A stretch of 64,000 nt of DNA from Physcomitrium patens (taxonomy: Eukaryota > Streptophyta > Bryopsida > Funariales > Funariaceae). The notes below the pieces were generated by a model that worked only from the letters and a program-made list of their open reading frames with translations, did no database searches and was not told the origin of the DNA. Numbering within the stretch: position 1 is the first letter of the stretch; the number at the start of each line of letters is the position of its first letter. Below, one piece after another: positions 12,735-61,830 of the stretch. Location of the stretch: positions 7,360,533 through 7,424,532 of the forward strand of contig NC_037257.1 of assembly GCF_000002425.4 (NCBI RefSeq), given 5' to 3'. A program made the translations under genes and the position numbers.

Positions 12735-12745
12735 TTGACAAGAGT
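12735..12745 (+). other. Putative self-primer binding site of B
   Basis: TTGACAAGAGT starts two bases after the 5' LTR, as in C. It is complementary to the start-of-transcript block of this family; B's own 3' LTR has ACTCATGTCAA (18301-18311), one base different. No TGG-type tRNA primer site is present at this position. Confidence 0.55.
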
Positions 12746-12899
12746 GTACTTACAATATCAGAGCTTTGTCTAATCTTAATTAAGAGTAGATTATTCCTTT
12801 CTCTTGAGTATTTTTTTTGTTCTCAAGTCCTCTCTTCTATTTGTCTTCAATGATATTAGACATCTTCTCTTTTCTAAGTATTATCATGACAAAACTTGC

Positions 12900-18799: not shown

Positions 18800-18958
18800 A
18801 GGAGGATAATCCACAACCTCTAAAAATGTCCACAAAGAAGGATAATCCACTCTCTTTAAGGAAAAGATCAGTGTTAGAAAATAAGATTTTTTTATTTAAA
18901 GGTGGATAATCCGCAACCTTCAAAATACAACAATAGAAGTGAGGTAATTCACTCACTT
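18800..18958 (-). promoter_or_regulatory. Leader of element A with a four-copy GGATTATCC-type motif
   Basis: On the + strand the copies are GGAGGATAATCCACAACC (about 18801), GAAGGATAATCCACTCTC (about 18837), GGTGGATAATCCGCAACC (about 18900) and GTGAGGTAATTCACTCAC (about 18938). It lies between 5' LTR and gag. A packaging or translation role is inference. Confidence 0.5.
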
Positions 18959-19000
18959 CTAAAACAAGACAAATACAGTATGTTAGTATTCTTGTCAAAC

Positions 19001-19551
19001 TATCAAGAACATGAATCTCGAAGAAAGAAAATCCTCAACACACTCCTATATCACTTGAAAGGAACTAGAAAGTCACTCAAAGTTGATATAATATTAAACT
19101 AGAATGGCTATTGCCAAAAACAAAAAGACTAGAAAATCTTAAAACAAGACTAAGGACTAGAAAGGCATTGACAAGAGTGAAGAAGGCTTTATTCTTGTCT
19201 CCATATATACTTTTTAACTAGGAGTTACGTGAGAATATTCTATAGGACCTCCAACATGTGTTGACTTTACTAGCCACATGTTTTAACTTACAAGGCAAGT
19301 TATCTATATATGTATGATATAGTTAGCTTATTCCACAAGCTATTACACTGAGTTAACTTATTCTACAAGCTACCAACACGTGGTTAATTTGCTGGCCAAG
19401 TTTCTATCCTATAAATACATCTAAAGTCAAAATTGCGTCTATGAAGCTTCTAAGAAGCTAGTTTAGAAGACTTTATGAAATTTATCTATATTTACCTACT
19501 TCTACCTAATTATATAAATAACTATTTGAATAAATGTGTATGTTTGTGATA
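19001..19551 (-). repeat. 5' LTR of element A
   Basis: 551 bp, partner of 7916-8466. On the - strand it has the start block ACTCTTGTCAATGCC (near 19165-19180), and the leader directly downstream begins GTTTGACAAGAATAC, a 9-base complement of that block. Confidence 0.92.
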
Positions 19552-27667: not shown

Positions 27668-30600
27668 CTACAACTCCTTCCATTGTACCCACAGCTGTGG
27701 GTAATAAATAGCTGAAATGATGGAAAGACAGATAAACTGATGGCAGAGTTCACACAGGCAACGCAGCAATTGTCGAAATCCTAACCTTTTGGGATCTTTC
27801 CAGAGCAGATCATAAATAATTTTCTTCAACCGCCCTGTCGACATCCTGCGGATTCCCCACTTACTATACAATCGATACCGCTCCCTCATGCTTGCATTCG
27901 TTGCAATATTGATGTAGATAGCATCCCTTTGCTGTTTAATAAGCTCCTTAAGTGACTCCCGACTTTCCAGTCTCTCCTGCAGTCTTTCAATATTTGGAAC
28001 CTCCCAAGAATGTGCTTCTGGACTGGAGAGATCTGGGTTACTAAATGCCATCTTTACCTGCCATAACCAGACGATGTTTGAGCCCTACAAACATTTATCC
28101 TATAAGAATGGATCGTTTTTGAATAATGCAGACAACTTTCCTCACATATGCTTAAAACCTATAGTGAAGTGACATGCCAACAATATCAGAGTCCAAGCGA
28201 GAAAAAGGAACAGGCTACAACCAATTGGTGACAAAAAGATTCATGGCTTCAAATCAGTTTTTAGGCGAACGGAGAAACTACAATGGTTACCTCATGACGG
28301 AGAAGAGTAGGATTGGTCACCAAATATTTGAATTTGAGCGATCTCGTCACAAGGTCGATACAGTTGTCATCCCACAGTTTGCATAAATCATGCAGGGAAG
28401 GGGCAGAGTTCTCTGCGCGCATCAATCCGCCGTCTGAAATCAATGTCATCAATCCACAATCCCAATAAGAAGAAGAGCTTCTTCTAAAACTCTCAAATTG
28501 TTCTCCAGTTGTAAGAAGTGAAGGATCAGAGAGTTCCTCTGGGAACCAAACACGATGACAATCTTTCTGCTTGAGCATGGCTTCATAATTGTCTTCAAAA
28601 CAGGAGTAATGAAGAACATCGTCCCACTGAGAGTCAGTTTCAGATTTCAAAACTCCATTTTCAGACACTTTACTAGAAACCTCCGGCGGTGGAAAAGCAT
28701 GTTTAGTCGAATTGGATACTAATGCTTCATCACCAGTGAATAGTGCTCCAGCATGTTTAGAAGGGACTTCCTGTGATGAGAAAACCACAGAACGAAAACA
28801 CAAGTTTAAAAAAAAATTATTGATAGCGTAACAGGACCATTTAAATTTCTCACTAATGTCAGTATGAATCAGAATAATGCACTACATTAATGCAACAATA
28901 AGAGCAAGTATACAAGTCAACCACCCTAAAGATATGAATTTGACAATATAGAACTTTGACACGTTGATGTACAACTACCAAGCGAAGTAAATACCTCGCA
29001 ACTGAACGCTGGGGAAGCTTTCGCGCGTACCTTCTCGACAACATCAAACTTCGAATCCAACTTCGAGGGAGATATGCATGTCGAGGAAGCGGCACTCTCC
29101 GTATCAGAGTCGCCTTTTCCATGGCGTTTTCTTGAAGATGGACTCTGCAGAAAGTACTTTTTCGACACAGACAAAGAGCTTGATCTCTCCTGACTGCTGA
29201 GGACGGGGTTGTACGAGACCAGCGGAGTATCAGGGGAAGCGGGACTGGTATGAAGCAATCTTTCACAAACCTTCCTCTCCGACGATACACACCTATCTTC
29301 ATCTGGAGGAGTCTGGTGTTCGTGGAATTTGTGCCCTTTCTCATCGAAGGAGATTCGCCTACTTTTCTTAGGCAATGGAGGCTTGGATCTGTAAATCGCA
29401 CTACAGGATCTTGTAACTACATTCCTAGATCGGCTTACTTTAGGAGTAACGAAGTTGCTGTAGTCTCTGCTGAAGCTGGTGTCGTACCGATCAACAGACC
29501 CACATTTAAGAGGTTCGTCTACAACTTTTTTATGAGACTCAGAATCTAACACAACTTCCCACTCGATTGGGTCCTCAAATGTATTGGGCAAGAGATCCCT
29601 AGGTTGGAGAATTGCATCTTGCACAGCAACAACGTTCCCATCCACAGCCTTGTCACAGAAGTCGTCCTCACCTTCAGATGTGGACAGCGGAGATCCCGAA
29701 ACCTGAAAATAAGTAGATTGGGATTTTTCAAAGCCACTTTGAGGAGTTTCAGAAACACCATCTCTAGTTCCATGGTTTTGCTCCACAAGCTGCAAAAAGT
29801 CTTGAACTGTGGCCTGACATCTTTTACTGTAACTTCGAGAATCTCTGGAAGCTCTTACATCGTCCAACTCATCATATAACCCAAGGAAGTTAGTATCGTT
29901 CTGCTCAGCCATGTCCCCTGCGTCATGTGAATCAGATATGGTTGGCTCTGGAAGAGTAGGTTTCGGCAATGCGGAGACAGGGGGTGATCTTTCTTCGAGG
30001 TCTTTAATAATATTGCCCGAGTTGGCATCTGAAGGTTTGTCCCCACGATTGTAATGGCATGCTCCTAGGTTGCCTTCACAATCTCCCAGTTCATCAACGT
30101 CGTCTAAATTGAAATCCAGTTTCCTTGCTGAATGTGAGAAATCATCACTTACAAAAGCGCCATTACACACTCTGATAAAGGTCTTCTGTTGAGAATATCC
30201 CACTGATCCCGGACAAAACGAGTCATCAACAGATCTGCCATTGCAAGATGGTGAGAATAAAGGATCTGAAGGTACTACTGGATCGGGCGAACTTTCAAAA
30301 AGCTTAGAGAGCTCATCCAGGAGTTCTTCCTCCAGTGCAGGTGATAGTGGAGAATCAAGAACCCTCGCTGGTACATTGGTATTCAGATCATCGGGGGTGT
30401 ATGCTAGTGCTCGAGAAACAGGCACCACCCCATCTTCCTTCGGAGTTGGAACTATGCAACCATGAAGGGATTTCATGTTAGGATCTGATGAAGTAGAAAG
30501 CGGAATGCTCGTCACCTCGGGATTGTCCCGATCGCTATCAGTTGTGTCAGATTCTTCAGGATTCATGAACTCGACTAGAAGTTGGACCGGTTCCATTTTT

Positions 30601-33544
30601 GATTCAGAATGAGGAGATCCTTCAAGAAGCAGAGTCGACTTCCGACCTTTAGTTACGGGTGTAGCCCAGTCTTTAGTGGGGGAGTGGTGAAGCTCAACCA
30701 CGTCATCAGTACTTGGCTCCAAAATAACTGGGACTGATGGTGAGCTCTTGGTAGGGTCTCGCTTTCGCGAACTCCATTCTTTGATAGGTGTTGGAGGAAG
30801 TGATCCTTCAATGCTTATTTTAGCAAATGTAAGTTCCTTCGCAGGTGAACACGCAGGACTATCTAGACTGCAGGAATCATAGTTCGACGTCCTAGTCTTA
30901 GACGGAGAAGGTGATTGAAGGTCTTTACCACTATCGTCAGCCAATACTGTGCTAGAGAACCCAGACGAGTAAGGAGAAATGGAGGTCAGAGTGGTGGAGA
31001 GGCCATTCACACTAGAGTCCTGCTCGCCACATGGTAAAAAACTTAAAAACTCGTCAAAAATCTCATCTTCTTGTGTTGCTGAAATGTCACAGTCGTAGAG
31101 ACATCGAAAGGGACATCCGAGTGTATTCGAACTTTTTTGGATGTCTTCCCCTGCAAGAACGAACAGCATGTTCAAATTAGGACCCGCTTTAACCATCACA
31201 GAATAGGTGGCAACGCACACAGGTTGACGTCTTGATCAAGTTGAAAGATCCTGCCTTTCTCTAACAGATATTAATAGCTGGATCATAAATGAACTTCGGA
31301 AAGTTATTGCAGATATATCACCAAACACGTTGAACAATGTTTCACCGCCCGAGTTATCAAACACGGGATCATCAAATCCTATAGAAGAAAAACTTAACGA
31401 AATTCGAAGTAACCGTTTCCTTACCTGTGACATCAAGTGCGGAATTGGTGCGACTGGAGAGTCTCCTGGATTCTCGCCATCGTCTTTGAATTGTGATAGC
31501 TGCATGTCGGAGGATACGGTGACTGCGTCTAGCCAAAAACATTCGCCACTGCGACTGCACAATATTTACATCAAGTAATTGATAAGATGACTGCAGAATA
31601 GCTCTGAAAACATAGAGCCGCTTTTCAGATTTTGAATCAAAGGTGGTTGATTTCATTTAGACTACTGCAACTAACTTAGCCCTGAATCATATCTTAATCA
31701 GTAGTGACATTTTCCCGTGACTCTAAGCAGGTAAGAGAGCGTTCAGATGAACCTGAATCAAAATAGCTGCTTTTGCTCGGTCAGCTGACCAGGAAACGTC
31801 CCGGTGACCCGAACGAAGAGCACTTCGATGTTGTAATCGACGGGACATCTTTTCGCCAGACGGATGACGCTTAAATCTAATTTGCGTTCTACGAAGAACA
31901 ATGGGGGCGACACGCTTTGAGTCGATGGATTTTGGAAAAGTTCTAGGGCTCTTTGCTCCTATCTTAGTAGGTGTTCGAGGAGCTCCCCCAGACCTTTGAA
32001 GTCTACCTTTGCTAGACTTTCGAACTTTGCTTTTACGTAACGGAGAAGGCACCCTGCTGGATTTCCTAGTTGTGGAAGAAATGTAGGATCTACTAGTTCT
32101 AGCTGCCATCGAGAATCCTCGCTTGCTGTCTGATGCTTTGAAGATTCGGTCTGCATATTCACGTCACACAAATTATATGAATGTTTCTTTGCCTTCCATA
32201 ATCATCATGCAATTACTAGCCCAAAGATGACTCTCATGCTTGGAGCCTCATCTAACTCAACTTGACTCTATGAAGAAGCGCTTTCGAAGACAAACACATA
32301 ACTAGGAACTCATGAGACAAAGCTGATGCTTAGTCCACGTATCAAGTGTCGTTCAAGAGAATTAAAATGACATAAAAGAAAATACAGTCGGTTGGAGACC
32401 ACGCTGACAAAACCTACAGTTCACGCCAGTATCCACACCTCTAAGATTGCTTTGAGCCGTGAGAATAGTAGTAATGTTATTGAAAGCAATAGGATCAATT
32501 TGCTGAAGACAACGCAACACTTTCCTCCAGAGGTACAATGCCTGTTCTTTGCCAGATCCCCGGACGTCTCCTGACATAGAGTACCAAATCAAAAGACATG
32601 ATACGCATGTTAGTGTTAGGTGAAGAATTAAGCCAGAGATTTTAAATTCCAATCTCTGTGGATTTTTCTCTTGAGAATGGCATCTCTCAGCACGTTACAA
32701 TAAAATACTTCTCTTCATTTGGGAAAATTGCTTACCATTATGGACCTTCGCTAGTGTCTCCAAGTCTGTCTTTAAAATTGCATCCTTGATGTAATTCGAC
32801 CAGTAAGCTACAACAGTGCTTTGAGCATGACCTAAATTCCTGCATGTTACAGGTATTTTCATTAGACAACGCCACCTGAAGTGATACGAATCAGTACCCA
32901 AACACCGAGGATTGGGAATATAATAATCATTAGCTCATTACAGACGACACCGTGGGGTAGATGCATAACCGCAACAGTCAATAATTGGGTTTCAAGTATA
33001 TTAGCAATGGAGAGATTTCAGCAAAAGAGTTCTACATTCAATACGGAACGCTCGGGAGTGGACTTCACAACCTGTAAAACTACTTTTAAAACAGAAGACA
33101 TTGATTCATGGAAAGAAGGCAGGAAACGGCCTTGTACCTCCACCGTAACCAAGCGTAAGACTTCTTGTGATTCAAGGAATCTGTGTGATGTTGGTCAGAG
33201 GGCTTGAGAGGTAGAGCATTAGCCCCAAAGTCGCCATTACGCCAGCGAACCCGGTTGTATGTCTCCACAAAATGTATCACATTTAAAAGTGGTCGCATAC
33301 AACGACTTCTGTTCGTCAACTTCGTGTGCTTCTTCAGCTCTACCAGGGCGTCTGACCCGAAAATTCCTTTTTCCAAACCATTCTTTGGTCCACTAGGCGC
33401 GCGCATACTTCCCTTCGGTTTCGGATGGCTGCATGCCTGGTGCTTCCTCTCAAGCCCTTCAGAGATCTTAATAAAATCAAAGACCAAGCCATTCCGAGGG
33501 CTGCGTTTCCCAATTCGAGACTGACTTGGGAGGTCACTCGCCAT
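27668..33544 (-). CDS. Large IQ-motif protein of unknown function, 1398 aa
   Basis: Exons in reading order: 33544-33138, 32839-32736, 32570-32439, 32150-31753, 31554-31425, 31150-28995, 28770-28291, 28057-27668; 4197 bases, all GT-AG and in phase, start MASDLPSQSRIGKR. Residues 1-214 are helical with aromatic patches (VIHFVETYNRVRWRNGDFG, AYWSNYIKDAILKTDLETL). Residues 215-340 are very basic with TPTK and SPR sites. About 342-378 carries two IQ-type repeats built across an exon junction (AAILIQ|SQWRMFLARR and AAITIQRRWRESRR), predicted to bind calmodulin-like proteins. Exon 6 (391-1109) is a long disordered Ser/Asp/Pro region with many SP/TP sites, suggesting phosphorylation. The last ~100 residues (RDAIYINIATNASMRERYRL, LYSKWGI, LLWKDPKR) recall the C-terminal domain of plant NACK-type kinesins, but there is no motor. 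Function unknown; cytoskeletal or cell-cycle role is a guess. Confidence 0.8.
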
Positions 33545-36982: not shown

Positions 36983-37136
36983 CTAATAACTATCCAGATA
37001 ATATGAATAGATAGAAGGTAATTATTGGTAGATTTGATATTATCTTATGGTGATGCTTCTTCAAAGCTTCAGAAATGCTTACTTGACTTCATGCGTATTT
37101 GTAATTATTTGGTAGGTTAGAAACTTGGCCAATAAT

Positions 37137-37688
37137 TGTCACGGCCATAATCATGTAAGCTAATAATTACATATAGAAATATGTAGAAGTAAGTAAAAGT
37201 AGATAAAAGTAAGTTAATTCTATAATATTTAATATAGAAGCTTCCTAGAAACTTTCTAGACGCTGCTTTGACTTCATAGATGTCTTTAATTGACTTTTTG
37301 GATTAGAAACGTGGTCAACAAGTTGGCCATGTGCCACACATGTTGTTAGCTTGAAGTTCAAGCTAACTATGTGGCCCATACGTAGAAAAACTTGCCTTGT
37401 AAGTCAAGGCATGTGTCCTACAAAGTCAACACATATTGGAGGTCCTATAGAACGTCGCCACGTAGCCCCTAGTTAGATAGTATATATAGAGAGAAGAGTG
37501 AAGGCTTCTTCACTCTTGTCAACTCCTTTTTTGCTTCTAGTCCAGGTTCAAGAGTCTTTAGTTTCTTGTCTTGTGGCAATAGCCATTCCAGTTTCTTTTT
37601 AATATACCTACTTGTTTACATTTTGACTTATTATATCGAGATAGCCTTTTTGTGTATATTTTCCCACATCGAGTCTTTGTCCTTGACA
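37137..37688 (+). repeat. 5' LTR of C
   Basis: 552 bp. TATATATA lies at 37481-37488, and 31 bases after its first T comes ACTCTTGTCAA (37512-37522), the predicted transcript start. An exact inverted repeat AAGAGTGAAG/CTTCACTCTT straddles that start. Confidence 0.95.
37481..37522 (+). promoter_or_regulatory. LTR promoter of C: TATA box and predicted start
   Basis: TATATATA at 37481-37488 and predicted first bases ACTCTTGTCAA at 37512-37522. The spacing fits plant TATA promoters. The start is not mapped; it is inferred from spacing and from complementarity to 37691-37701. Confidence 0.6.
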
Positions 37689-37690
37689 GA

Positions 37691-37701
37691 TTGACAAGAG
37701 T
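37691..37701 (+). other. Putative self-primer binding site of C
   Basis: TTGACAAGAGT, two bases after the 5' LTR, is an exact 11-base reverse complement of the predicted transcript 5' end (37512-37522). No TGG-starting tRNA complement is found there. A TATCAAAGC box 21 bases further on resembles part of the tRNA-Met site but is badly placed. Confidence 0.65.
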
Positions 37702-37738
37702 ACACTTACAATATCAAAGCTTTGTTTTTCTTGAGTAA

Positions 37739-37802: not shown

Positions 37803-37899
37803 CTAAACTGATATTGTTCTTAGTATCTTCTTTGTTATCAAGTCTTTCTTTTCTTTTGTCTTGAGCAGTATCAAAGAAATTTTTCTTCTTAGTGTCATT

Positions 37900-38904
37900 A
37901 TGGCAGAGCTTGTTGAAATGAAGAGTGCAATGGCACAAATGCAAGAGCAAATGAAGGAGTTAATGCTTGCGATGCATCAACTCAATTCACCAAGACAGGA
38001 AAGAACAAGAATAGCAGAAAGTGGGGATATAGAGATGATCGGAGCTGCTTCAACATCTACAACAAATCACGTTCCTTCTCCAATTGTACAACACCCTGTA
38101 AGCACTAGAGAACCAAGAATTGCCTTACCCGAGAAATTTGATGGTACGAGATCAAAGTTTCAAGGGTTCATCAATCAAGTACAATTGGCAATTGAACTTC
38201 AACCGCAAAGCTATCCAACTCCAGGATCACAAGTCAGGTTTATTGGCACTCTACTTTCTGGTTCTGCATTATCGTGGTTTTTGTCTTTTCTTGAACAACG
38301 AAATCCAATATTGGACAATTTGGAAGTTTTTTTGGCAGAGTTTCGATCTATGTATGGTGAACACGATGCAACTCGTGTTGCAACAAATAAGATCCGAATT
38401 CTGCGACAAGAAAATCGCTCAGTAATAGTATATGCTTTACAATTTCGACAACTTGCAATTGACATCAAGTGGGATGATGCTGCACTCATCAATCAATTTC
38501 TTTATGGATTGCAATATGAAGTAAAGAAATTGATGCTCAACTTACCTGATCCTCAAACTTTGAGTCAAGCAATCGATTTTGCGGTAAAATGTGATAATCG
38601 ACTTTTCAAATTTCGATCCGAAAATCATTCACGGGAACCTCAACGTTATTACTCAATGGCAACATCAACATCTTTGCCAAACGTACATTCGAAAGTAGAA
38701 GACATGCAAATTGACGCGGTACGTTTTAAACCCCTAACTGAGCAAGAAAACATTCGTTGTCGTCAAGAAGGATTATGTTTATATTGCGGAGAACCTAAGC
38801 ACACTGCTCAACATTGTCCAAAGAAACGACGCAACTATAAAATGAGGGGTACAGTGGTCAAAGAAGACAACATGTCGGAAAACGGATTCGTCCAGCTACA
38901 ATAG
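37900..38904 (+). CDS. Element C Gag, 334 aa, intact
   Basis: Capsid-type Gag that would package element RNA. The ATG at 37900 (MAELVEMKSAMAQMQEQMKE) is the first good one after the leader. The N-terminus is a coiled coil; the middle (PEKFDGTRSKFQGFINQVQL to about residue 240) is the retrotransposon gag domain. One CCHC knuckle, CLYCGEPKHTAQHC, lies near residue 305. There are no internal stops, the only intact long frame among these elements. The stop at 38902 is followed by pol in the -1 frame; the two frames overlap from 38841 to 38904. Confidence 0.9.
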   Translation: MAELVEMKSAMAQMQEQMKELMLAMHQLNSPRQERTRIAESGDIEMIGAASTSTTNHVPSPIVQHPVSTREPRIALPEKFDGTRSKFQGFINQVQLAIELQPQSYPTPGSQVRFIGTLLSGSALSWFLSFLEQRNPILDNLEVFLAEFRSMYGEHDATRVATNKIRILRQENRSVIVYALQFRQLAIDIKWDDAALINQFLYGLQYEVKKLMLNLPDPQTLSQAIDFAVKCDNRLFKFRSENHSREPQRYYSMATSTSLPNVHSKVEDMQIDAVRFKPLTEQENIRCRQEGLCLYCGEPKHTAQHCPKKRRNYKMRGTVVKEDNMSENGFVQLQ

Positions 38905-41900
38905 AGACTGTGCAGCTGGAACCTTGTACAATTCCTAATGAAGGTCCTATCCTCTCCTCAAAACCCTCTTCTTGTTTTATAATAGACTTATATTTAGGAT
39001 CTAAGAATTACAAAGCCTCTGCTTTATTAGATTCGGGAGCCTCAGCATGTTTTTTAGATGAACAATTTGTTAAAAGTCGTAAAATACCCTTTGTACAGAA
39101 ACCTAAACTAGTACATGTAGAAGTCATAGATGGTCGTCCCTTGTCTTCTGGAGATGTCACTCATGAAACTCATCCTATAAAAGTAACAATAGACGGTCAT
39201 GATAGCTACATAGCTTTTAACATAATTAAATCCCCGTCCAATCCAGTTATTTTAGGTTTATCCTGGCTAGAAAAATATAACCCTCGAATAGATTGGAATT
39301 TACGTAAACTTGATTTTTTCCAGAGCGTTATTAATAGTTCTACCAACCAAGTAAAAAATTATAAGTCTAGTATAGTAAAACCCGTACTGATAGGTGCAAA
39401 AGCATTTATACACGTAGCAAAAGAAGGATCAACTTTTGCTATTTATGCTGCACCTATTTCTGAAAACGTAAAGACTTCAAGTGGTATTCCAAGTCAATAT
39501 CAGGAGTATCAAGACGTTTTTGAGAAAAAGAATGCAGATATTCTTCCTCAGCATCGCCCATATGATTGTTCAATCGACCTCAAGGAAGGAACTCAGCCAC
39601 CATTTGGACCAATTTACAGTTTATCGCAAGATGAGATGGCTGAACTCAAGACATATATTGACGAGGATTTAGCAAAGAATTTCATACGCCATTCAAAATC
39701 TCCAACAGGAGCTTCAATTCTATTCGTAAAGAAAAAAGATGGATCTTTACGAATGTGTGTTGATTATCGAGGACTCAACAAGATCACAATTAAGAACAGG
39801 TATCCATTATCTTTGATATCAGGACTCCTTGACCAGTTGAATCAAGCTAAGATCTATACAAAAATAGATCTAAGAGGAGCATATAATCTAGTACGGATCA
39901 AAGAAGGAGATGAATGGAAGACTGCGTTTTGAACCAGGTATGGATATTTCGAATATAATGTCATGCCCTTTGGATTCACGAATGCACCAGCTACTTTTCA
40001 ACATCTCATGAATGATGTATTTCATGAATTCTTAGACAATTTTGTCGTCTGCTATCTAGACGATATCCTGATCTATTCTAAGAACGTCGAAGAATATGAA
40101 ATACATGTTCGTCAAGTATTACAAAAACTTAGAGATGCAGGATTGTACGCCAAGATGAAAAAGTGTGTATTTCACACTACTCAAGTTGACTTTTTAGGAT
40201 ACATCATTTCAAATGATGGTCTCATGATGGATTCTAAGAAAGTCCAAACAATCATGGATTGGAAGATTCCAAGGACAGTAAGAGATGTCCAATGTTTCTT
40301 GGGATTTGCCAATTACTATCGGATCTTCATCAAAGATTTCTCACGAGTTACAGCTCCACTTACGCGCTTGACTAGTAAAGATAAATTCCAATGGAATCAA
40401 GAAGCGGAAGCAGCATTTGAAGCCTTGAAGACATCGTTTGTCTCTGCACCAGTCTTATAACGTGTTGACTTTTCTAAGGCATTTTTTATGGAAACAGATG
40501 CATCAGATTTTGCCTTGGGTGCAGTTTTATCACAAATGGGAACAGATGACAAACTTCATCCGATAGCTTTTCATTCAAGAAAATTCTCAGCAGCCGAGAT
40601 CAATTATGAGATCCACGATAAAGAACTTCTTGCGATCGTGGATTCCTTTCAAGAATGGCGTCATTATCTAGAAGGCGCTTCTAGTCCAGTCACTGTGTAT
40701 ACAGATCACAAGAACCTCGAGTATTTCATGTCAGCACGCGTGTTGAATCGTCGTCAAGCTCGTTGGAGTATGTCTTTGTCAAGATTTGAGTTCATTATCA
40801 CTTATCGGCCAGGAAAACAACAAGGTTTGTCTGATGCCCTATCTAGACGTTCTTATTTTGCACCAAAAGAAAGAGATACAGCTTTTGAGCAATAAAAAAT
40901 GGTCCTCTTCAAACCGGAGCAATTTCATCTCCGAGCAATGAAATCAACATTGACTGTTGATTCAACTTTTCTCAAGCAAATCCAGTCCAGTATGTCCTCA
41001 GACCCTCTTGTTTATGATATCGAGAATAATTCTTCCAAGTCTCATGATCCTTCTAAGTTCGAGTTCAAGAATAATCTATTATATTTTGAAGGACGCCTAT
41101 ATGTTCCTGAAGGAGAAGCACATTTACGTGTTCTTCAAGCACGTCATGACTTTCCAGCAGCAGGGCACTTTGGATATAATAAGACTTTGGAACTCATATC
41201 AAGAGATTTTTGGTGGCCACAAATGTGGAAGTCAGTCAAAGACTTTGTACAATCATGTGATATTTGTTCAAGATCAAAAATTCCTCATCATCGACCTTGC
41301 GGACTTCTTTAGCCATTACCTATACCAGAACAACCATGGTCTTCTGTTTCTATGGATTTCATCACAGATCTTCCAAGCTCAAGATCTTATGATTCTATAT
41401 TTGTGATAGTAGATCGTTTCACCAAGATGGCACATTTTGTGCCATGTACAAAATCTATCACAGGTGAAGAAACACCTAAGCTTTTCATTGATAATATCTA
41501 TCGCTATCATGGATTACCTAAAGATATCATATCAGATAGGGGAACTAAATTTGTGTCAAGATTTTGGAGGACCCTTTTCAAGATTTTAAAAGTGGACATA
41601 AAGCTATCTTCGGCTTTCCATCCTCAAACTGATGGACAAACAAAGTGCGTAAACCAAGTCTTGGAGCAATATTTAAGGTGTACTATCAACTACCAATAAG
41701 ATGATTGGACAACCCTTCTGCCATTGGCAGAGTTTGCTTATAATAATACGGTACATTCTTCCACGCAACAAACACCTTTCTTTGCCAATTATGGCTATCA
41801 TCCACGACTTGATACTTTTGATTTTTCAAAAGTTGATAATCCTGCAGCAGAAGATATGGCAAATCGGTTGTCAGAGTTACATGCAATAATGAAGACGCAA

Positions 41901-42398
41901 TTGAAGGAAGCTCAAGAACGACAAAAGATAAACGCAGATCTATATCGTAAGGAGCAACCACAACTCAATGTGGGTGATAAGGTATGGCTACTTCGTCGCA
42001 ATATCAAGACTACTCGACCTTGTGACAAGTTGGACTATCGTAGGCTTGGCCCCTTTTCTGTTTCTGAACAGATCAACCCAGTTGCATATCGGTTACATCT
42101 ACCGGAGTCAATGAAGATCCATCATGTATTCCACGTGTCTCTTCTTGAACCATATAAGACAGTGGATATACAAGGAAGAAGACAAATGCCACTGCCTCTT
42201 ATAGAAGTAGATAATAATGAAGAATTTGAGGTAGAAGAGATATTAGACTCAAGGCGGCGCCGAAATAAGCTGGAATATCTTGTTCATTGGCGCGGATATG
42301 ATATTAGTGAACGCACATGGGAGCCATCCAGGAATCTAACAAATGCATCAGCTAAAGTCAAAGTTTTTCATCAACGACATCCATCAAAACCAAGATGA
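38841..42398 (+). pseudogene. Element C Pol (PR-RT-RH-IN-chromodomain), broken by five stops
   Basis: One continuous frame, stops excepted. Protease LLDSGASACFLD (about 39027), RT with [20 protein letters not shown] (about 39720) and CYLDDILIYSK (about 40050), RNase H with [14 protein letters not shown] (40488) and [11 protein letters not shown], integrase zinc region HFGYNKTLEL and CDICSRSK, integrase core MDFITDLPSSRSYDS with HPQTDGQT, the GDKVWLL module, and a chromodomain at about 42230-42360 (EVEEILDSRRRRNKLEYLV, HWRGYDISERTWEPS). Stops: TGA 39930, TAA 40458, TAA 40893, TAG 41310, TAA 41697. Four are explained by a single C-to-T change. There is no frameshift, so decay is recent. Not functional as it stands. 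Confidence 0.93.
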
Positions 42399-42849: not shown

Positions 42850-42956
42850 AGAGAACAGAGATCAGAGTATGTGGCGAATACAATTCGTCGCATCATAGAT
42901 TTCCTCAACATATGATGACCGCTCCTCGTGGAACTCGTCTCTAGAAGGGGGGGTAA

Positions 42957-43504
42957 TGTCACGGCCATAATCATATAAGCTAATAATTACATATAGAAAT
43001 AGGTAGAAGTAACTAAAAATAGATAAAAGTAAGTTAATTCTATAATATTTAATATAGAAGCTTCCTAGAAACTCGTAGACGCTGCTTTGACTTCATAGAT
43101 GTCTTAAATGACTTTTTGGATTAGAAACGTGGTCAACAAGATGGCCATGTGCCACACATGTTGTTAGCTGAAAGATCAAGCTAACTATGTGGCCCACACG
43201 TAGAAAAATTGCCTTGTAAGTCAAGGCATGTGTCCTACAAAGTCAACACATATTGGAGGTCCTATAGAACGTCGCCACGTAGCCCCTAGTTAGATAGTAT
43301 ATATAGAGAGAAGAGTGAAGGCTTCTTCACTCTTATCAACTCCTTTCTTGCTTCTAGTCCAGGTTCAAGAGTCTTTAGTTTCTTGTCTTGTGGCAATAGC
43401 CATTCCAGTTTCCTTTTAATATACCTACTTGTTTACATTTTGACTTATTATATTGAGATAGCCTTTTGTGTATATTTTCCCTCATCGAGTCTTTGTCCTT
43501 GACA
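42957..43504 (+). repeat. 3' LTR of C
   Basis: 548 bp; same ends as the 5' LTR. The start block here is ACTCTTATCAA (43329-43339), one C-to-T change from the 5' copy. Confidence 0.95.
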
Positions 43505-44208
43505 ATAATTTAGCCACATGTCAAACCTATTAGTAGCTTGTAGAACAAGCTAAATATGTGGCATATATATATATATAAAGTGTCTTGTAAATTAAGACAT
43601 GTATTAAAGATCCTATAAAACATCGCCATGAAGCTCTTAGTTAGATAGTATATACACAAGCAAGAATGAAGCATTCTTCACTCTTGTCAATGCTTTTCTT
43701 GTCTTTAGTCTTATTTCAAGGCCTTTTAGTTCTCTTTAGCAATATCCATTTTAGTTTATTATTATACCATTTTTGAGTGATTTTCTAGTTCTTTTGAGTG
43801 CCTTGAGAGTATATTGACTTTTTTAATTCTTTGAGATTCATAACTTTGATAATTTGATAAGAGTATTAATTTTTTTAATTATTTTTTTTTAAAAGAAGTG
43901 AGTAGATTATTCCACTTCTATTGTTGTATTTTTGAAGATTGTAGACTATCTACTTTTAAACTAAGAATTTAATCTTTTAATACTATTTTTTTTTTTTTTT
44001 TAAATCAAAGAGTGGACTATCTTTCTTTGTAAAACTTTTCAATTGGTATTAAAAATTGTGGATATTCTTCCTTTCATTTGACTTGTAGATTTATTTGAGC
44101 TATCTATAGAAAAAAAATATTTAATATTACTCTAGACAAAAGTAAGAATAGATTTGTAACTATTACAAATCTTTATGATCTTATTAACACTCTTAGGATT
44201 AAAATCTC

Positions 44209-44742: not shown

Positions 44743-45504
44743 TGTAGAATAGATAATAATTCGTTTTTGAAAGATATTGATAAAATATATTAATAGTCCA
44801 TATAATAGGAAATTTAAGAGGAAAATGAGTGATTTAGTTCTTAAAAGTAGTTAATTACAAAATTATAGTTAGAATCTAGAAAATCAAAGGAAAGTATATA
44901 AGAGTTGTAGAAGTTAATTAAGGTGCCATCGCTGTGATAGTTGTGAGCCGGGGTAAGCTTGGTGCTACTTCTTTTCTTTTGTTTGTTATTTTCTTTGAAT
45001 AAGAAGATTGAGAGTTTCTGAATATTGTGAAGTGAATTGTGGAATGGAAATGTGATTGGTATTATTTGAAAAGAAGAAAGATTTAATGCTGAAATCTGAT
45101 TGTAGTTTAGTAGAGAGAATGAGTCTATGTTTGTGTGAAACACCGTAATGTAAATGGCAGTTCTGTGTGAAGAATTCCAATGATTGGAATGAGGATAATT
45201 GTATGCTGAAAGCTATGAGGGCGCAGTATTATAATTGGAGATTATGAGGGTGAATATATTGGTGGAAATAGCAATTATTGGTATGACTGAATTGCTTAAG
45301 GAAGAGATTGATAAGGTGAAGGAGGAGATTATAGTTTCCTTGTGTGTTCAGATATTAGAAATAGAGAAGATACATTGAGGAGATAATTGATTGTGTGACC
45401 CTAATGTGAACGCTTAAGCAACTAATCATTCCCCATGTTCGAATCTCCCTATATGGATTTATTTCCATTAGATTAATTTGGAATAAGTAAAATGAGCAAT
45501 CACA
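44743..45504 (+). repeat. 5' LTR of D
   Basis: Partner of 50047-50809, over 95 percent alike by eye. A GTTCGAATCTCCC block near 45435 resembles a tRNA T-loop but no full tRNA fold is evident. Confidence 0.93.
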
Positions 45505-45507
45505 TTT

Positions 45508-45524
45508 TGGCGCCGCTGCCGAGG
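45508..45524 (+). other. Primer binding site of D
   Basis: TGGCGCCGCTGCCGAGG, three bases after the 5' LTR. Close to TGGCGCCGTTGCCGGGG, the tRNA-Asp complement known from Athila/Tat-type plant Gypsy elements. Confidence 0.8.
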
Positions 45525-45581
45525 AGTGATAATAGCTTTCAGTGTTAGGAATTAATTACCAAACGTGTGAGAAAATTGGCA

Positions 45582-48500
45582 ATGAAAGACGATTCCAGTA
45601 GTGTTTGAAGCAAGATTATGGTTAATAAGAACGAGAGCATTGCATCGAGGAAAATAAATCAGTTGAGAGAAAGATATGGAAGAGCGCAAGGAAAGAACTT
45701 GCTTAGAGAGAAGCAAGAACATAATCTTAAAAAGAAGCATCGATAGAAATGGATTAAACCATGGATGCAAGCTTGTCGGCACATCCAAATATATCAAGAA
45801 CCAGACAGACTGTTAATTCTGCAGTTGTATGTATCGTTAGAAAAACTGCCAAAAACACTCGCGAGAAATTTTTTTAACATTCCACTGGAAATCTTGAGGC
45901 CGTTAACTGAAAGAGAAGGAGGCGTAGAAGAATTTGGTACTCCATTGGGTATTTATCCAATAGGGCGTACCGCTGAAACGAGCAATAGTGGTTCTTTAGA
46001 TTGGCACAAATTGGTCGCCAATAAAGATAACTATATTGTATTTCAAAATTAGATGTTTTCACCTACAATTCAACCAATAAAACTATTTGTAAAAAATAAC
46101 AGTAAATCAAGGAGCACTGAGAGTTCGGAAATTAGAATAAGAAAAAACAGAGATTATTTTAAAATAGAGTTTAGTGGAATAAAAAATTCAATGGCGTCAG
46201 GAGGACCAGCCGTTCTGATTGCAGTACAAATGGGTGTAGTAGGCAATCGTATGACTAGTGTCATGCCACTACCTACTTTTTGAGGATTTTCGAGTGCGGA
46301 TCTTGATCAACATTTGTCTCAATTTCATACAGCATGTGTAGCCAATAATGGCAAAATTGAAGATATTTGGTTGCGATGGCTGCCAGTGACATTGAAAGAC
46401 ACAGCGTTTGAGTGGTATAACTGCCAACCTGTGGGACAATTTATTAATTGGGAGGCATTGAAAAATATATTTTAAGCCCATTTTCGACCAATTGGTTTTG
46501 AAGAACGTCTTAGAGAAAAATTAATGAATAGCAGAATGGTACCAAGGGAAGCGGTACAGTCATATTATAGTCGCGTAGTAGATATACTTCAAAAATGGCC
46601 AAATAACCAAATACTAGAATCGTTTGTGTTGTCCATATTGGTTAATGGACTACATCTACCAGAATTGAAGATGTTTGTAAAAGAGGCCCAATCAGCCACC
46701 ATTGCATCATCTCTTGAGCGAGCGAAAGTATGGGAGGAATGTCACTATGATCAGAACTTAACAGTTGGAGCCACGATGATTCCATCTCAAGGAGATTATC
46801 AAATAATAAATTAGAATGACGCATCAGAAGGTTATCTAGGAAGAAATGATTATGGTACAATTCCATAGGGAATCGTAGATGTTGTTCCATTGCAGGCTGT
46901 ACCACCATCATCATCACACCCGTATGTCTCTTATTCCATGTATCAAAAATCAACACCTACGAAGGAATTGCCAAATGCATTGGTATCAAGGGATCCCAAT
47001 GAGTCATTGCTGTTAACATTGACGAAAAAAATGGATGAATTGGCTGTGAATCTAGCCAAGGATAAAGAAAAAAGATATAAACCAACCAATATGCGTCCCA
47101 ATGTCTGGTGCAGAAATTGTAAGAGACAAGGTCATTTAGTAACAGAATGTCCTTCACCTCTTCAAATGACTATATAATTTACCTTTTATGGGGGTAAGCA
47201 TATTACCAACAACTGTTGGAATTTACAGAAGCAACAATAACTCAGTAACCAGATAATGACTTAACCAACTTCGTGGGATGTCAATCAAGTACAAACAAAT
47301 AATAGTTTTGGCTGGAATAGAAATCGAGTGAATAAACAAAACAGGAATTATTCCAATTTTCTAAACTCTAAATTTCACCAAAAAGGTGTATCCAATACTC
47401 ATGGATTGGTGATGAACCAACCAGGATACCATCAATATCTATCCATGACGAAGCCAATGCCAAAGTCTACAATAACAATGGGTCAATCGGGATCCTTTAC
47501 TCATCCAATATGGAATAGACCTAGCCGTTATATACCAGTAGAGACACCCAATATCCCTAAAGGAGCTGGCAGGAGACAACTTCGTTGCTATCGTTGCAGA
47601 CAAATTGGTCATTATGCCAATGAATGTCCTAATCCAAGGGCTAGTGATGACTATGCTCCAATATGTGGAAATTGCAAGCAATCTGGTCACACTTATCAGT
47701 AGTGCAATGCGCCCTTTAATTATAATAACTAAGACCAGCAAATGTAAACAAGCCAACCGGCGAAGGACAAAGGCCCTGTTCAACTAGACTCACGAGTACA
47801 TCGTGTCGAGGTGGTGAACGTAGTGCTTACTAGAGGCCAACAAAAAGACAAGAATCCAATTCAGGACCTAGATGAACCAATCGCAGGAGAGCAAGTAACG
47901 CCATCCATGGCGCTAAACGAACTAATATCAGTATTGGGACGTATCCCAATATTGAGACCTCAACAAACTGAGGAATCCAATTTGGCTCCACGTGCCAATT
48001 TATCGTGACCATCAAGAACGATCTCAATTGACCAACTACCAATATCTGTACAACCCAATAAAAGATCTTACGCATTATAGGAACCTTTAGTGATAAAAAA
48101 GTTGGCAAAGTTACCAGCGGCAATCTCAATCGCCAGGAAGGAATTGCTGTCGAACGAAGTAAAATCGAAACCAATGAAACGCAAAAAAACATTGGAAATT
48201 ACTCTCAATATAGAACCCTATGATATTCTGAAGGATTTGGATGTTATTCACCCTTCAATTACAATGAAGCAACTTTTGGCTATAGCATTGGAATGTCGAT
48301 CTATATTGAATTCAGCACTAATATGACGAAGATCCCCCACTAAAGAAATTTATGAAGTTAGCTTAAATCTAGATCTGGGAGCACCAACAATTGATGTATC
48401 AATCGATGGCATTTTAATTCCAGGGATACAAGTCGATGGTGGCTCCAATGTAAATTTTATGAATGCAGATACAATAGAGGACTTGAATCTAAAGCAATTG

Positions 48501-49577
48501 CTACCTACAACATTGGTCTTGCGAATGACAGATCATAGTCGGGTAAAGCCAATGGAAATCTTACGAAATATTGCCACTGTAATTGCGGGGTTGACATACA
48601 AAATCGATTATATTGTATTCCGATTACAGAGTTCTACGTTATTGTATCCCATTTTATTGGACAGACCTTGGCTTTATCAAGCCAAAGCTAAGAATAATTG
48701 TGGCCGAGGTACATTGACAATTAAAAAACGTCGTGACCAGATTGTTCTATAGATGTATCCGGTACAATATCATGGAGAATCTAAATTGTCAAAATCAAAA
48801 TTTATATTGGACAATAAGAGTCAATCGATTGAGGAAGATGTCGATGCTATAGGTTCATCGTAATTTGGGGTAGGACAAAATACTTCAACAGCAAAGGTAG
48901 GAGTCTACCAATGTGGAAGTCACGGCGAATATTTATTGCATCAGGAAGATGCGACTAACTTAGATCATGCTATTGCCGAATGGATGAATAATTTTGCAGT
49001 CAATAGAGTTAGCACATTGGAACCAGATTTGGGTGGTTTCCATATGACGAATAATATAAGATATTCAGATCAGGAGAAGACAATTAAATCAGAGGTTGTT
49101 GAAGACCTTGTGTGTCAATCTATTAACATGGGCACCAACAAAATGCCACAACTAATTAAAATATATGCTGATATTATAGGTACAGAATTGGATGCTTGGA
49201 AACAATTTTTTGTCCATCACAAATTTGCCTTTGCATGGTCATATGCGGATTTGAAAGGAATTCCAATTGACATGTGTGAGCACCAAATTATTTTGAAGGA
49301 GGATGTTATGCCAGTTCGTCAAAGACAACACTGGCTTAACCCAAAATATTCACTTTTAGTGAAAGAGAAATTGGATAAACTTCTCGACGTGGATTTTACT
49401 TATCCTCTATCAAATAGTGAGTGGGTTTCTTCAATCGTGATGGTACCGAAAAAAAATGGAAAAATCAGGATATATCAAGATTTCTGAAAACTTAATGTGG
49501 CTACCAAAAAAGATTACTTTCCATTATCTTTCACGGACAGTATGGGTAACATGTTGTCGTTATCACTACTAGGTAAA
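45582..49577 (+). pseudogene. Element D gag-protease-RT fragment in one frame, many stops
   Basis: One frame runs from an ATG at 45582 to about 49577. Gag domain: about 46290-46810 (LRWLPVTLKDTAFEWYNCQP, YYSRVVDILQKWPN). Knuckles: CRNCKRQGHLVTEC (about 47110), CYRCRQIGHYANEC (about 47587), CGNCKQSGH (about 47670). Protease: about 48365-48700 (IQVDGGSNVNFMN; the DSG box reads DGG). RT start: about 49180-49560 (HHKFAFAWSYADLKGI, VSSIVMVPKKNGKIRIYQDF). RT ends abruptly after motif I. Nearly all stops (46050, 46281, 46473, 46812, 46866, 47175 and others) fit CAA, CAG or CGA changed by C-to-T. Gag-pol as a single frame is normal for this group. Confidence 0.88.
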
Positions 49578-49708
49578 AGAATAGGAGTGGGGTACTAATT
49601 AAAGTCATTTTGTGGTATTGTTTTCAGTTGGCTAGAGTGCCATTTTCTTATATTTCTTATATTTTCGAGAGTAGTAGTTAAGAATTAATAGTGAGGAGCT
49701 GGTCATAA

Positions 49709-49942
49709 GTGTCGATTGAAGATACTCCAGAATGGATGAGTCAGCAGCAACAACAATTGGAACTTCGGGATGTCCAGATCTTGAAACTGGATGCTCAAGT
49801 CCGTGTACTGGGTGAGTATAATGAAGATCTATCAAACCAGTTGAGGAAGGAGTCGATGGACTGGAGGAAGAAGAAGAAGATTTACAATTGGAATCAGATT
49901 TGGTCGAACTTACATTCGATAATGCGGCAAATGATTAATTAG
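49709..49942 (+). CDS. Small coiled-coil ORF in element D, about 77 aa, uncertain
   Basis: Reads SIEDTPEWMSQQQQQLELRD then heptad-like DVQILKLDAQVRVLGEYNED. It lies after the RT deletion in a different frame. It could be the remains of an extra ORF or chance. First codon apparently GTG in context, so no clean start. Confidence 0.35.
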   Translation: MSIEDTPEWMSQQQQQLELRDVQILKLDAQVRVLGEYNEDLSNQLRKESMDWRKKKKIYNWNQIWSNLHSIMRQMIN

Positions 49943-50046
49943 GTGGGCCATAGGAACTAGTAACTTTGTGGAGATTTGTAAAGTAGTTTTTAGATAAGTA
50001 TCAATTGAATGTTTGCGAAGACGCTGCACAGATAGGAGTGGAGCTA

Positions 50047-50809
50047 TGTAAAATAGATATTAATTCGTTTTTGAAAGATATTGATAAAATATATTAATAG
50101 TCCATATAATAGGAAATTTAAGAGGACAGATGAGTGATTTAGTTCTTAAAAGTAGTTAATTATAGAATTACAGTTAGAATCTAGAAAATCAAAGGAAAGT
50201 ATATAGGAGTTGTAGAAGTTAATTAAGGTGCCATCGCTGTGATAGTTGTGAGCCGGGGTAAGCTTGGTGCTACTTCTTTTCTTTTGTTTGTTATTTTCTT
50301 TGAATAAGAGGATTGAGAGTTTCTGAATATTGTGAAGTGAATTATGGAATGGAAATATGATTGGTATTATTTGAAAAGAAGAAAGATTGAATGCTGAAAT
50401 CTGATTGTAGTTTAATAGAGAGAATGAATCTATGTTTGTGTGAAACACCGTAATGTGAATGGCAGTTCTGTGTGAAGAATTCTAATGATTGGAATGAGGG
50501 TAATTGTATGCTGAAAGCTATGAGGGCGCAGTATTATAATTGGAGATTATGAGGGTGAATATATTGGTGGAAATAGCAATTATTGGTATAACTGAATTGC
50601 TTAAGGAAGAGATCGATAAGGTGAAGGAGGAGATTATAGTTTCCTTGTGTGTTCAGATATTAGAAATAGAGAAGATACATTGAGGAGATAATTGATTGTG
50701 TGACCCTAATGTGAACGCTTAAGCAACTAATCATTCCCCATGTTCGAATCTCCCTATATGGATTTATTTCCATTAGATTAATTTAGAATAAGTAAAACGA
50801 GCAATCACA
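50047..50809 (+). repeat. 3' LTR of D
   Basis: 763 bp, from TGTAAAATAGATATTAATTC to AGCAATCACA. Partner of 44743-45504. Confidence 0.93.
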
Positions 50810-52130: not shown

Positions 52131-52178
52131 AATAAAAATAAAAAAAAAAATAAATAAAAGTTAATATTCTTGTCAAAT

Positions 52179-52628
52179 TGTCAAAGATATGAATCTCAAA
52201 GAATTAAAAGTTCAATATACTCTTAAATCACTAAAAATGACTAAAAAATCACTCAAAGATGATATAATAATAAACTAAAATGGATATTATTAAAGAAGAC
52301 CAGAAAGTCTTGAAACAAGACTAAAGACAAGAAAGGCATTGACAAGAGTGAAGAATGCTTCATTCTTGCTTTAATATATATGGTTCAATTAAGAGCTATG
52401 TAGCAATTTTCTTTAGGACTTTTGGCACATATCTACTTACAAGACAAGTTTCTTATATGTGCACCACATAGGTAGATTTTTTCATATGTTATTAACACAT
52501 GCAATATGTGGCTTACTTGCTAGCCAAGTTTCTAACCTATTAATCAACTACAAATATGTGTGAAGTCAATTATGCATCTATGAAGCTTTTAAAAAGCATT
52601 ACCACAAGATAATATTTAATCTATTGAT
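52179..52628 (-). repeat. 5' LTR of E
   Basis: About 450 bp, from TGTCAAAGATATGAATC to AATCTATTGAT, shorter than A because of an internal loss near its U3 end. The leader starts ATTTGACAAGAAT, complementary over nine bases to the start block ACTCTTGTCAATGCC. The right end rests on the candidate TSD GAAAG. Confidence 0.7.
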
Positions 52629-61440: not shown

Positions 61441-61471
61441 CAAAAATAATGAATTAGCATTCTTATAAAAT

Positions 61472-61830
61472 TATTAAAGAAATGAATATAGAAGAATCAA
61501 AAACTCAATATATTCTTATGTAACTCAAAAAGAATAGATATTTATTTAAAACTAACATAGTAACAAAAATTGAATGACTATTACTAAAGATAAAAAGACT
61601 AAAAAATCTTAAAATAAAACTAAGGACTAAAAAGTCATTGACAAGAGTAAAAAAGACTTCATTTTTGCTTCCATATAAACTATCTAAGTAGAAGCTATGT
61701 CACAATGTTCTATAGGATATTTGATACAAGATCAATTTACAAGACTTATATTTTAATTTGGAAGGCAAGTGTCTTATATGTCTGCCACATCATTAGCTTA
61801 TACCACAAGTTATTGATATGTATAACATAT
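61472..61830 (-). repeat. 5' LTR of H, truncated
   Basis: Follows the H left LTR from its inner end to about ATTAGCTTATACCACAAGTTATTG, then leaves it. About 360 of 522 bp remain. Confidence 0.7.

What the first reader, a model, noticed from the sequence alone, without database searches (positions are those of the whole stretch)
37481..37701. Chromovirus family that appears to self-prime reverse transcription
In C, TTGACAAGAGT (37691-37701) sits two bases after the 5' LTR and is an exact 11-base complement of ACTCTTGTCAA (37512-37522), which begins 31 bases after the TATA box, where the RNA should start. The match ends at exactly 11 bases on both sides. The pair recurs in B (one mismatch), F (one mismatch), A and E (nine bases plus one G-to-A change). 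No TGG-type tRNA site adjoins any of these LTRs. Known from Tf1/sushi-type fungal elements (first 11 bases of the RNA fold back as primer); in a plant chromovirus this would be notable.
Basis: partly seen in the sequence, partly recalled or inferred. Interest (0 to 1): 0.88.

Follow-up and report, generated by a model that had tools for sequence, protein, structure and literature searches.

The report
Self-priming jumping gene in moss
This is a moss retrotransposon whose RNA very probably folds its own first 11 letters onto a matching site to start DNA copying; that trick was already predicted for this group of plant elements, but relatives examined here support it strongly and show a further matching hairpin that may hide the second copy of the primer.

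Summary
In element C, R (37512-37522) and a site 2 nt past the 5' LTR (37691-37701) are exact 11-base complements, and R lies 31 nt after a TATA box. The host is a moss and the element a Tcn1-like chromovirus, so self-priming is not new in kind: Neumann et al. 2019 predicted it for moss and club-moss Tcn1 elements. New is the evidence. The own genome holds 3,605 exact pairs of this type and 1,638 of a second family with another primer. With contaminant contigs that look like moss and fern DNA, five R/PBS types pair fully, differ at up to 7 of 11 positions, and sit at the same places (TATA 31-33 nt upstream, 2 nt after TGACA). Within one family, dead copies show no covariation. Four of five types also carry an inverted repeat across the inferred start site (12-13 pairs, 4-nt loop) that changes with R. 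Its left arm is in U3, so in RNA it can form only at the 3' copy of R. I propose that it hides that copy from the PBS; I saw no description of it in the passages read. Transcript ends were not measured.

The parts
37137..37688 (+). 5' LTR of element C (TGTCA...TGACA)
   Evidence: blastn to 3' LTR, TSD ATAAT at 37132-37136
37481..37489 (+). TATA box TATATATAG, 31 nt before R
37491..37503 (+). U3 arm of the hairpin spanning the inferred start site (GAGAAGAGTGAAG; GACAAGAGTGAAG in 8 of 16 C-type picks)
37504..37507 (+). 4-nt loop; 7 forms in 16 C-type picks, but conserved in the A/D-type sample
37508..37520 (+). right arm of the hairpin, covers R bases +1 to +9
37512..37522 (+). self-primer: inferred first 11 bases of the RNA (start of R)
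37689..37690 (+). 2-nt spacer between LTR end and PBS
37691..37701 (+). primer-binding site, exact reverse complement of 37512-37522
37709..37720 (+). CAATATCAAAGC, at the place where family 2 keeps TGGTATCAGAGC; possible vestige of a tRNA-Met site
37861..42398 (+). interrupted coding region: gag, protease, RT, integrase C-terminal and chromodomain pieces
   Evidence: ORF list and Pfam on separate pieces
42943..42953 (+). polypurine tract AGAAGGGGGGG
42957..43504 (+). 3' LTR of C; its R copy 43329-43339 carries one G to A change
43680..43690 (+). R of element D
43854..43864 (+). PBS of element D (10 WC + 1 G.U to its R)
19168..19178 (-). R of element A
18988..18998 (-). PBS of element A (10/11)
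52339..52349 (-). R of element E
52166..52176 (-). PBS of element E (10/11)
61638..61648 (-). R of element F
61459..61469 (-). decayed PBS of element F (8 WC + 1 G.U + 2 mismatches)
12735..12745 (+). PBS of element B, whose 5' R is deleted

Best explanation
C and its kin are Tcn1-like chromoviruses of a moss that prime reverse transcription with their own RNA. Transcription starts at A37512, 31 nt after the TATA box (inferred). The first 11 bases fold back onto the PBS 2 nt past the LTR; by analogy with Tf1, the element's RNase H then cuts after base 11, and the short RNA primes minus-strand DNA (inferred). Shown here: the complementarity, its fixed geometry, and fully paired R/PBS sets of other sequence at the same places in other families. 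Also shown: an inverted repeat across the start site, made of R from about +1 to +9 and a U3 arm, which follows the primer's changes in four of the five primer types. In an RNA that starts at R, U3 is present only at the 3' end, so that hairpin can form only around the 3' copy of R. I infer that it hides that copy, which must later serve as template to restore the primer, from the PBS.
For: Exact 11-bp pair, 31 nt from TATA, 2 nt past a TSD-backed LTR end. Own genome: 20,479 exact 11-mers against 123 for the reversed control; 3,605 exact R..PBS pairs, control 0. Second family (RT 65-67% to C): R AGTCTCGACAA and PBS TTGTCGAGACT, found by place (32 nt after TATA, 2 nt past an LTR end defined by its 3' LTR), three positions changed on both sides; 1,638 exact pairs, control 0. 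Contaminant contigs: L116 same type; L117 12/12; L118, L120, L122 AAGGCGAACAA; L121 AAGGTGAACAA; all six lie 32-33 nt after a TATA box, have C before R and the PBS 2 nt after TGACA. In 62 copies ascertained without R or PBS, the R block ranks 3rd and the PBS 33rd of 311 windows for conservation. Folding puts R on PBS in 4 of 5 window leaders. Hairpin: z -3.5 to -7.4 in 8 of 9 loci; 10 of 16 C-type picks keep 13 of 13 pairs.
Against: No transcript 5' end, RNase H cut or cDNA was seen. Within the family no covariation at bases 2 and 7. The contaminant R/PBS sets were found by a search for reverse complements, so their full pairing, and the 55 of 55, is partly by construction; only their places are independent. 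That same search gave 11- and 12-base chance pairs in two unrelated contigs, L124 and L123. LTR ends of the contaminant contigs are read from TGACA, not from a second LTR. Only 16 of 61 copies pair 11/11, and 33 of 62 leaders fold with R on PBS; one of three family-2 leaders prefers another fold. Base -1 pairs in 33 of 62, so the primer could be 12 nt. Family 2 keeps a 12-base tRNA-Met-like site 23 nt past the LTR, 3 of 3. L117 has no U3 hairpin; in the A/D-type sample the loop is as conserved as the arms. No consistent side helices of the Tf1 'pretzel' were seen.
Confidence: 0.88

Rival explanations
1. A tRNA (whole, or cut within the anticodon arm) primes, and the R/PBS match is incidental.
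For: Family 2 keeps TGGTATCAGAGC, the plant initiator tRNA-Met site (recalled), 23 nt past the LTR end in 3 of 3 copies. C-type has a degenerate form at the same place. Half-tRNA priming is proposed for some plant copia lineages (passages of PMC6317226).
Against: A site 23 nt inside would leave extra bases beyond the integrase end (inference). No TGG lies within 34 nt of the LTR end in C or in the six contaminant loci that hold it. It does not explain matching R/PBS sets at the same places in five types. No tRNA set of this genome was compared.
Confidence: 0.06
2. The PBS-like block is a copy of the LTR's integrase end (TTGACA) or of the U3 arm, and R matches because of repeated motifs rather than priming.
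For: In C-type the LTR ends TTGACA, the PBS starts TTGACA and R ends TGTCAA; the U3 arm shares GACAAGAGTG with the PBS in young copies.
Against: Family 2 and the fern-type elements end TGACA too, yet their PBS and R carry other bases that still match. Position, 2-nt spacer and length are constant.
Confidence: 0.03
3. The start-site inverted repeat is a by-product (snap-back DNA synthesis) or a DNA promoter palindrome, not a primer guard.
For: Nothing here shows an RNA function. One element with a full R/PBS pair (L117) lacks it. In the A/D-type sample the loop (CCTT in 49 of 62) is as conserved as the arms.
Against: Similar stem length, loop size and place in moss and fern-type families with unlike sequence; in the C-type picks the loop takes 7 forms while 10 of 16 keep all 13 pairs. 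A protein-bound palindrome should keep its sequence.
Confidence: 0.42

Closest known systems
Tcn1 clade of plant chromoviruses (moss, club-moss)
   Same: Chromodomain gypsy element of a non-seed plant; no adjacent tRNA site; self-priming predicted for the majority of members (PMC6317226, passages read).
   Different: Here the prediction is backed by several families with different but matching R/PBS and by a start-site hairpin. Novikova et al. 2010 found neither tRNA nor self-priming evidence in SM-Tcn1 and no Tcn1 clones from ferns (PMC2864245, passages read).
Tf1/sushi elements (Tf1, Tf2, Tj1, sushi-ichi)
   Same: First 11 bases of the Tf1 RNA complement the PBS; cut between bases 11 and 12 (PMC7175516, passage read); 5' LTR ends in CA (PMC10085805, figure legend).
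   Different: The two side helices of the pretzel (PMC10085805, passages read) were not consistently seen; host is a plant; a U3-R hairpin is not mentioned in the passages I read.
Plant chromoviruses with tRNA-Met PBS (Beta chromoviruses)
   Same: Chromodomain gypsy elements; family 2 keeps a tRNA-Met-like 12-mer.
   Different: Beta elements have the tRNA-Met PBS at up to three nt from the LTR (PMC3605345, passages read); here that place holds the self PBS.
Fungal GalEa copia elements with a Conserved Hairpin Site
   Same: Hairpin near the priming region; no tRNA PBS (PMC5445492, passages read).
   Different: Their hairpin lies directly after the 5' LTR; here it spans U3 and R and contains the primer.

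Membership tests
Chromovirus | gag-protease-RT-integrase with C-terminal chromodomain | tested here: met
   Pfam hits on separate pieces of C: Retrotrans_gag, RVP_2, RVT_1, SH3_Tf2-1, Chromo
Tcn1-like plant clade | groups with moss/lycophyte Tcn1 rather than seed-plant chromoviruses | tested here: met
   Integrase/chromodomain piece hits Ceratodon (73% over 67% of the query) and Ceratopteris 52%; RT tree puts C with moss- and fern-type rows apart from Iris and Tanacetum, support 84/82 for the 33-row group. No named Tcn1 reference sequence was in the tree.
Tf1-type self-priming | PBS at LTR end complementary to R start | tested here: met
   11/11 in C and family 2, 12/12 or 11/11 in six contaminant loci
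Tf1-type self-priming | RNA starts at the first base of the 11-mer | not testable with these tools
   TATA 31-33 nt upstream and C before R in the ten loci are consistent
Tf1-type self-priming | primer and PBS change together | tested here: met
   between families (the contaminant pairs were found through complementarity); not within the family
Tf1-type self-priming | three-duplex pretzel fold of the leader | tested here: inconclusive
   R-PBS helix in 4 of 5 window leaders, 33 of 62 A/D-type copies, 2 of 3 family-2 leaders; no consistent side helices, judged by eye
Tf1-type self-priming | RNase H cut after base 11 | not testable with these tools
   no biochemical data
tRNA-primed chromovirus | TGG... 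tRNA 3'-end match within 0-5 nt of the LTR | tested here: not met
   no TGG in 34 nt after the LTR in C and in six contaminant loci; in family 2 only at 23 nt, 3 of 3

The most novel reading that the evidence does not exclude
Self-priming elements of mosses and ferns carry a U3-R hairpin around the transcription start that can form only in the 3' LTR part of the RNA. It masks the second copy of the primer, so that the PBS pairs with the 5' end alone and the copy needed to restore the primer is not cut. Primer, PBS and U3 arm thus evolve as a three-way set.
Probability: 0.42. Interest if true: 0.78.

Novelty: new variant of a known kind. Interest (0 to 1): 0.62.

Why it matters
Self-priming in plant gypsy elements has rested on prediction, as far as the passages I read show. 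Several families with different but matching primer/PBS pairs at the same places make it very likely, in a lineage with thousands of copies in one moss. Both LTRs carry the primer sequence, so an element that primes with its own 5' end must avoid using its 3' copy. The U3-R hairpin that follows the primer's changes suggests a simple answer, testable on short RNAs and in the Tf1 group.

Tried and rejected
Host taken for an arbuscular fungus at first (metagenome hits); rejected after moss hits. IMG/VR: three scans gave no usable relatives (the four pattern loci L001-L004 matched the LTRs over at most about 24 bases around the searched 17-mer, output cut). Genome searches with P0015 and P0096 were meant to find a third family and a tRNA-primed control and gave neither that I recognised; I did not assign the listed hits one by one. 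The two examined, L126 and L127, fall with C; one hit of 47% identity was not followed. Within-family covariation: absent. Pretzel side helices: none consistent. One search, first part, used a wrong offset for the arms; one search replaces it. Rows dropped: one of 62 (L047, gapped PBS) before the pair counts. The 15 C-type picks were chosen by me for diversity from 100 listed of 2,322 places; window C makes 16. Of 100 listed A/D-type places (282 in all) I fetched 60, in contig order, and added the window's A and D. L119 is not in the primer table: by the place of its RT the contig lacks the 5' LTR.

Full report
OBSERVATION. The C element has LTRs at 37137-37688 and about 42957-43504, TSD ATAAT on both sides and a polypurine tract. 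R starts 31 nt after the start of TATATATAG; the PBS starts 2 nt after the LTR's terminal CA. In the window five 5' LTRs keep R and PBS (C, D, A, E, F). By strict matching alone only C is far from chance (0.1% of 2,000 shuffles); A and E are at 3.7 and 4.7%, D and F are not significant. The case therefore rests on relatives.

WHAT IT IS. Pieces of C match gag, protease, RT, SH3_Tf2-1 and Chromo in Pfam. The integrase/chromodomain piece hits Ceratodon purpureus (73% over 67% of the query) and Ceratopteris (52%). A 763-aa window ORF has seven database relatives, of which the two named ones are mosses: Ceratodon 48%, Physcomitrium patens 37%. The genome G000 has 470 Mb in 101 contigs. That size resembles P. 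patens (recalled), but the identity is not proven, and the 37% hit does not help it. An RT tree places C with moss- and fern-type rows (33 rows, 84/82), apart from Iris and Tanacetum.

GENOME-WIDE COPIES. The exact 11-mer occurs 20,479 times against 123 for the reversed control, and as R..PBS pairs 3,605 times with control 0 (the pattern is its own reverse complement, so each place is listed twice). From an anchor that uses neither R nor PBS (282 places, 100 listed, 60 fetched plus the window's A and D), 16 of 61 copies pair 11/11 and 42 of 61 at least 10/11. The R block is the 3rd and the PBS the 33rd most conserved of 311 overlapping eleven-base windows (0.935 and 0.911 against 0.853 for other columns). 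The changes look like independent decay of inserted copies. Base -1 also pairs in 33 of 62, so a 12-nt primer is possible. Folding puts R on PBS with mean probability over 0.5 in 33 of 62.

BETWEEN FAMILIES. A query with P0056 found a second family, RT 65-67% identical to C in the five rows shown. Its LTR, bounded by comparison of 5' and 3' copies, has TATATATAG 32 nt before AGTCTCGACAA, ends GTGACA, then GT, then TTGTCGAGACT. I found this pair by place, not by complementarity. R and PBS differ from C at three positions, all changed on both sides; 1,638 exact pairs exist, control 0. A scan of bacterial genome assemblies found ten loci: L116 in a cyanobacterial MAG (moss-like by the tree), L117-L122 in a Trichormus MAG, and the distant L123-L125 (36-44%). 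Trichormus is the Azolla symbiont (recalled), so L117-L122 are probably fern DNA; not verified. A search of each contig for a block and its later reverse complement gave as longest hit: L116 AGTCTCGACAA (12 with the C before it), L117 ACTCTTGATCAA, L118, L120 and L122 AAGGCGAACAA, L121 AAGGTGAACAA. The same search gave chance hits of 12 and 11 bases in L123 and L124, so length alone proves nothing. What sets the six apart is place: each lies 32-33 nt after a TATA box, with C before R and the partner 2 nt after TGACA. Their LTR ends are read from TGACA and not from a second LTR. Over the five types own pairs score 55 of 55, the mean over all assignments is 34.2, and 1 of 120 assignments (the true one) reaches 55; for the three fern types that is partly by construction.

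THE START-SITE HAIRPIN. Half of the C-type picks (8 of 16) have the arm GACAAGAGTGAAG, mostly before GCTT and CTTCACTCTTGTC: the right arm is R -4 to +9, the left arm lies between TATA and the start. Family 2 and L116 have GTCGAGGCTGAAG..CTTCAGTCTCGAC; L118 has GTTCGCCTTGGT..ACCAAGGCGAAC; L120 and L122 the same with one G.U; L121 GTTCACCT..AGGTGAAC, with an A.A mismatch at R+1 and pairing that runs past +9. Window C itself has one mismatch. Folded windows give 12-13 pairs with 4-nt loops (L121 with three more outer pairs) and z from -3.5 to -7.4 in 8 of 9 loci; L117 has none. In the 16 C-type picks the loop takes 7 forms while 10 of 16 keep 13 of 13 pairs (WC or G.U). The A/D-type sample does not show this contrast: the loop is CCTT in 49 of 62 and the left arm GGCAAGAGTGAAG in 25 of 62. 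Because the left arm is in U3, an RNA that starts at R has it only in its 3' LTR part. My inference: the hairpin withholds the 3' primer copy from the PBS. Unmeasured alternatives are a by-product of DNA synthesis or a promoter palindrome.

TRNA TRACE. Family 2 keeps TGGTATCAGAGC 23 nt past the LTR in 3 of 3 copies; C-type has a degenerate form there. I read this as a relic of tRNA-Met priming, or as a kept accessory. It does not sit where a primer would make a clean LTR end.

LITERATURE. Neumann et al. 2019 (PMC6317226; [quoted passage not shown] Novikova et al. 2010 (PMC2864245; passages) saw neither kind of priming evidence in SM-Tcn1 and got no Tcn1 clones from ferns. The Tf1 mechanism is taken from passages of PMC7175516, PMC10085805 and PMC4600332. 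Searches were run; of their papers I read passages of eleven, and looked for 'hairpin' in four (PMC10085805, PMC7175516, PMC5445492, PMC3601003). None of those passages describes a U3-R hairpin around the self-primer. The other papers I saw as listings only, and most subscription papers are not in that library.

VERDICT. Self-priming: very likely, known in kind for this clade, newly supported by matching primer/PBS sets in several families. U3-R hairpin: a real sequence feature in four of five primer types, function open.

Noticed in passing
L095-L097; window 12754-12764 and 37709-37720: Family 2 keeps the 12-mer TGGTATCAGAGC (tRNA-Met site, recalled) 23 nt past the LTR, beside the self PBS; C-type elements show a degenerate form, as if tRNA priming was replaced.
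   Followed up: partly
window A leader, minus strand, about 18931-18963: A leader hairpin TTTAGAAGTGAG..CTCACTTCTA after the PBS; its left arm is the most conserved 11-base window of the A/D sample outside the anchors.
   Followed up: no
window 44743-50809: Unrelated LTR element, LTRs 97% identical, with TGGCGCCGCTGCC after its 5' LTR (a tRNA-type site by its TGG start), lying between D and E.
   Followed up: no
window 28926-31220 (-): 763-aa ORF without Pfam match; two named relatives, both mosses, the better a Ceratodon protein with a UG locus tag (perhaps its U sex chromosome).
   Followed up: partly
P0001, P0122, L116, L117-L122: Bacterial records (Streptomyces, Kitasatospora, cyanobacterial MAGs) hold moss- or fern-type chromovirus sequence, i.e. 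probable contamination.
   Followed up: partly
window LTR copies of A-G: The five 5' LTR copies that keep R have it exact, while the five other LTR copies (C3, A3, F3, G, B3) each have 1-2 changes in it; possibly chance or ascertainment.
   Followed up: no
L117-L122: Tcn1-like elements in probable fern DNA, whereas a PCR survey found no Tcn1 clones in ferns (PMC2864245, passages).
   Followed up: partly
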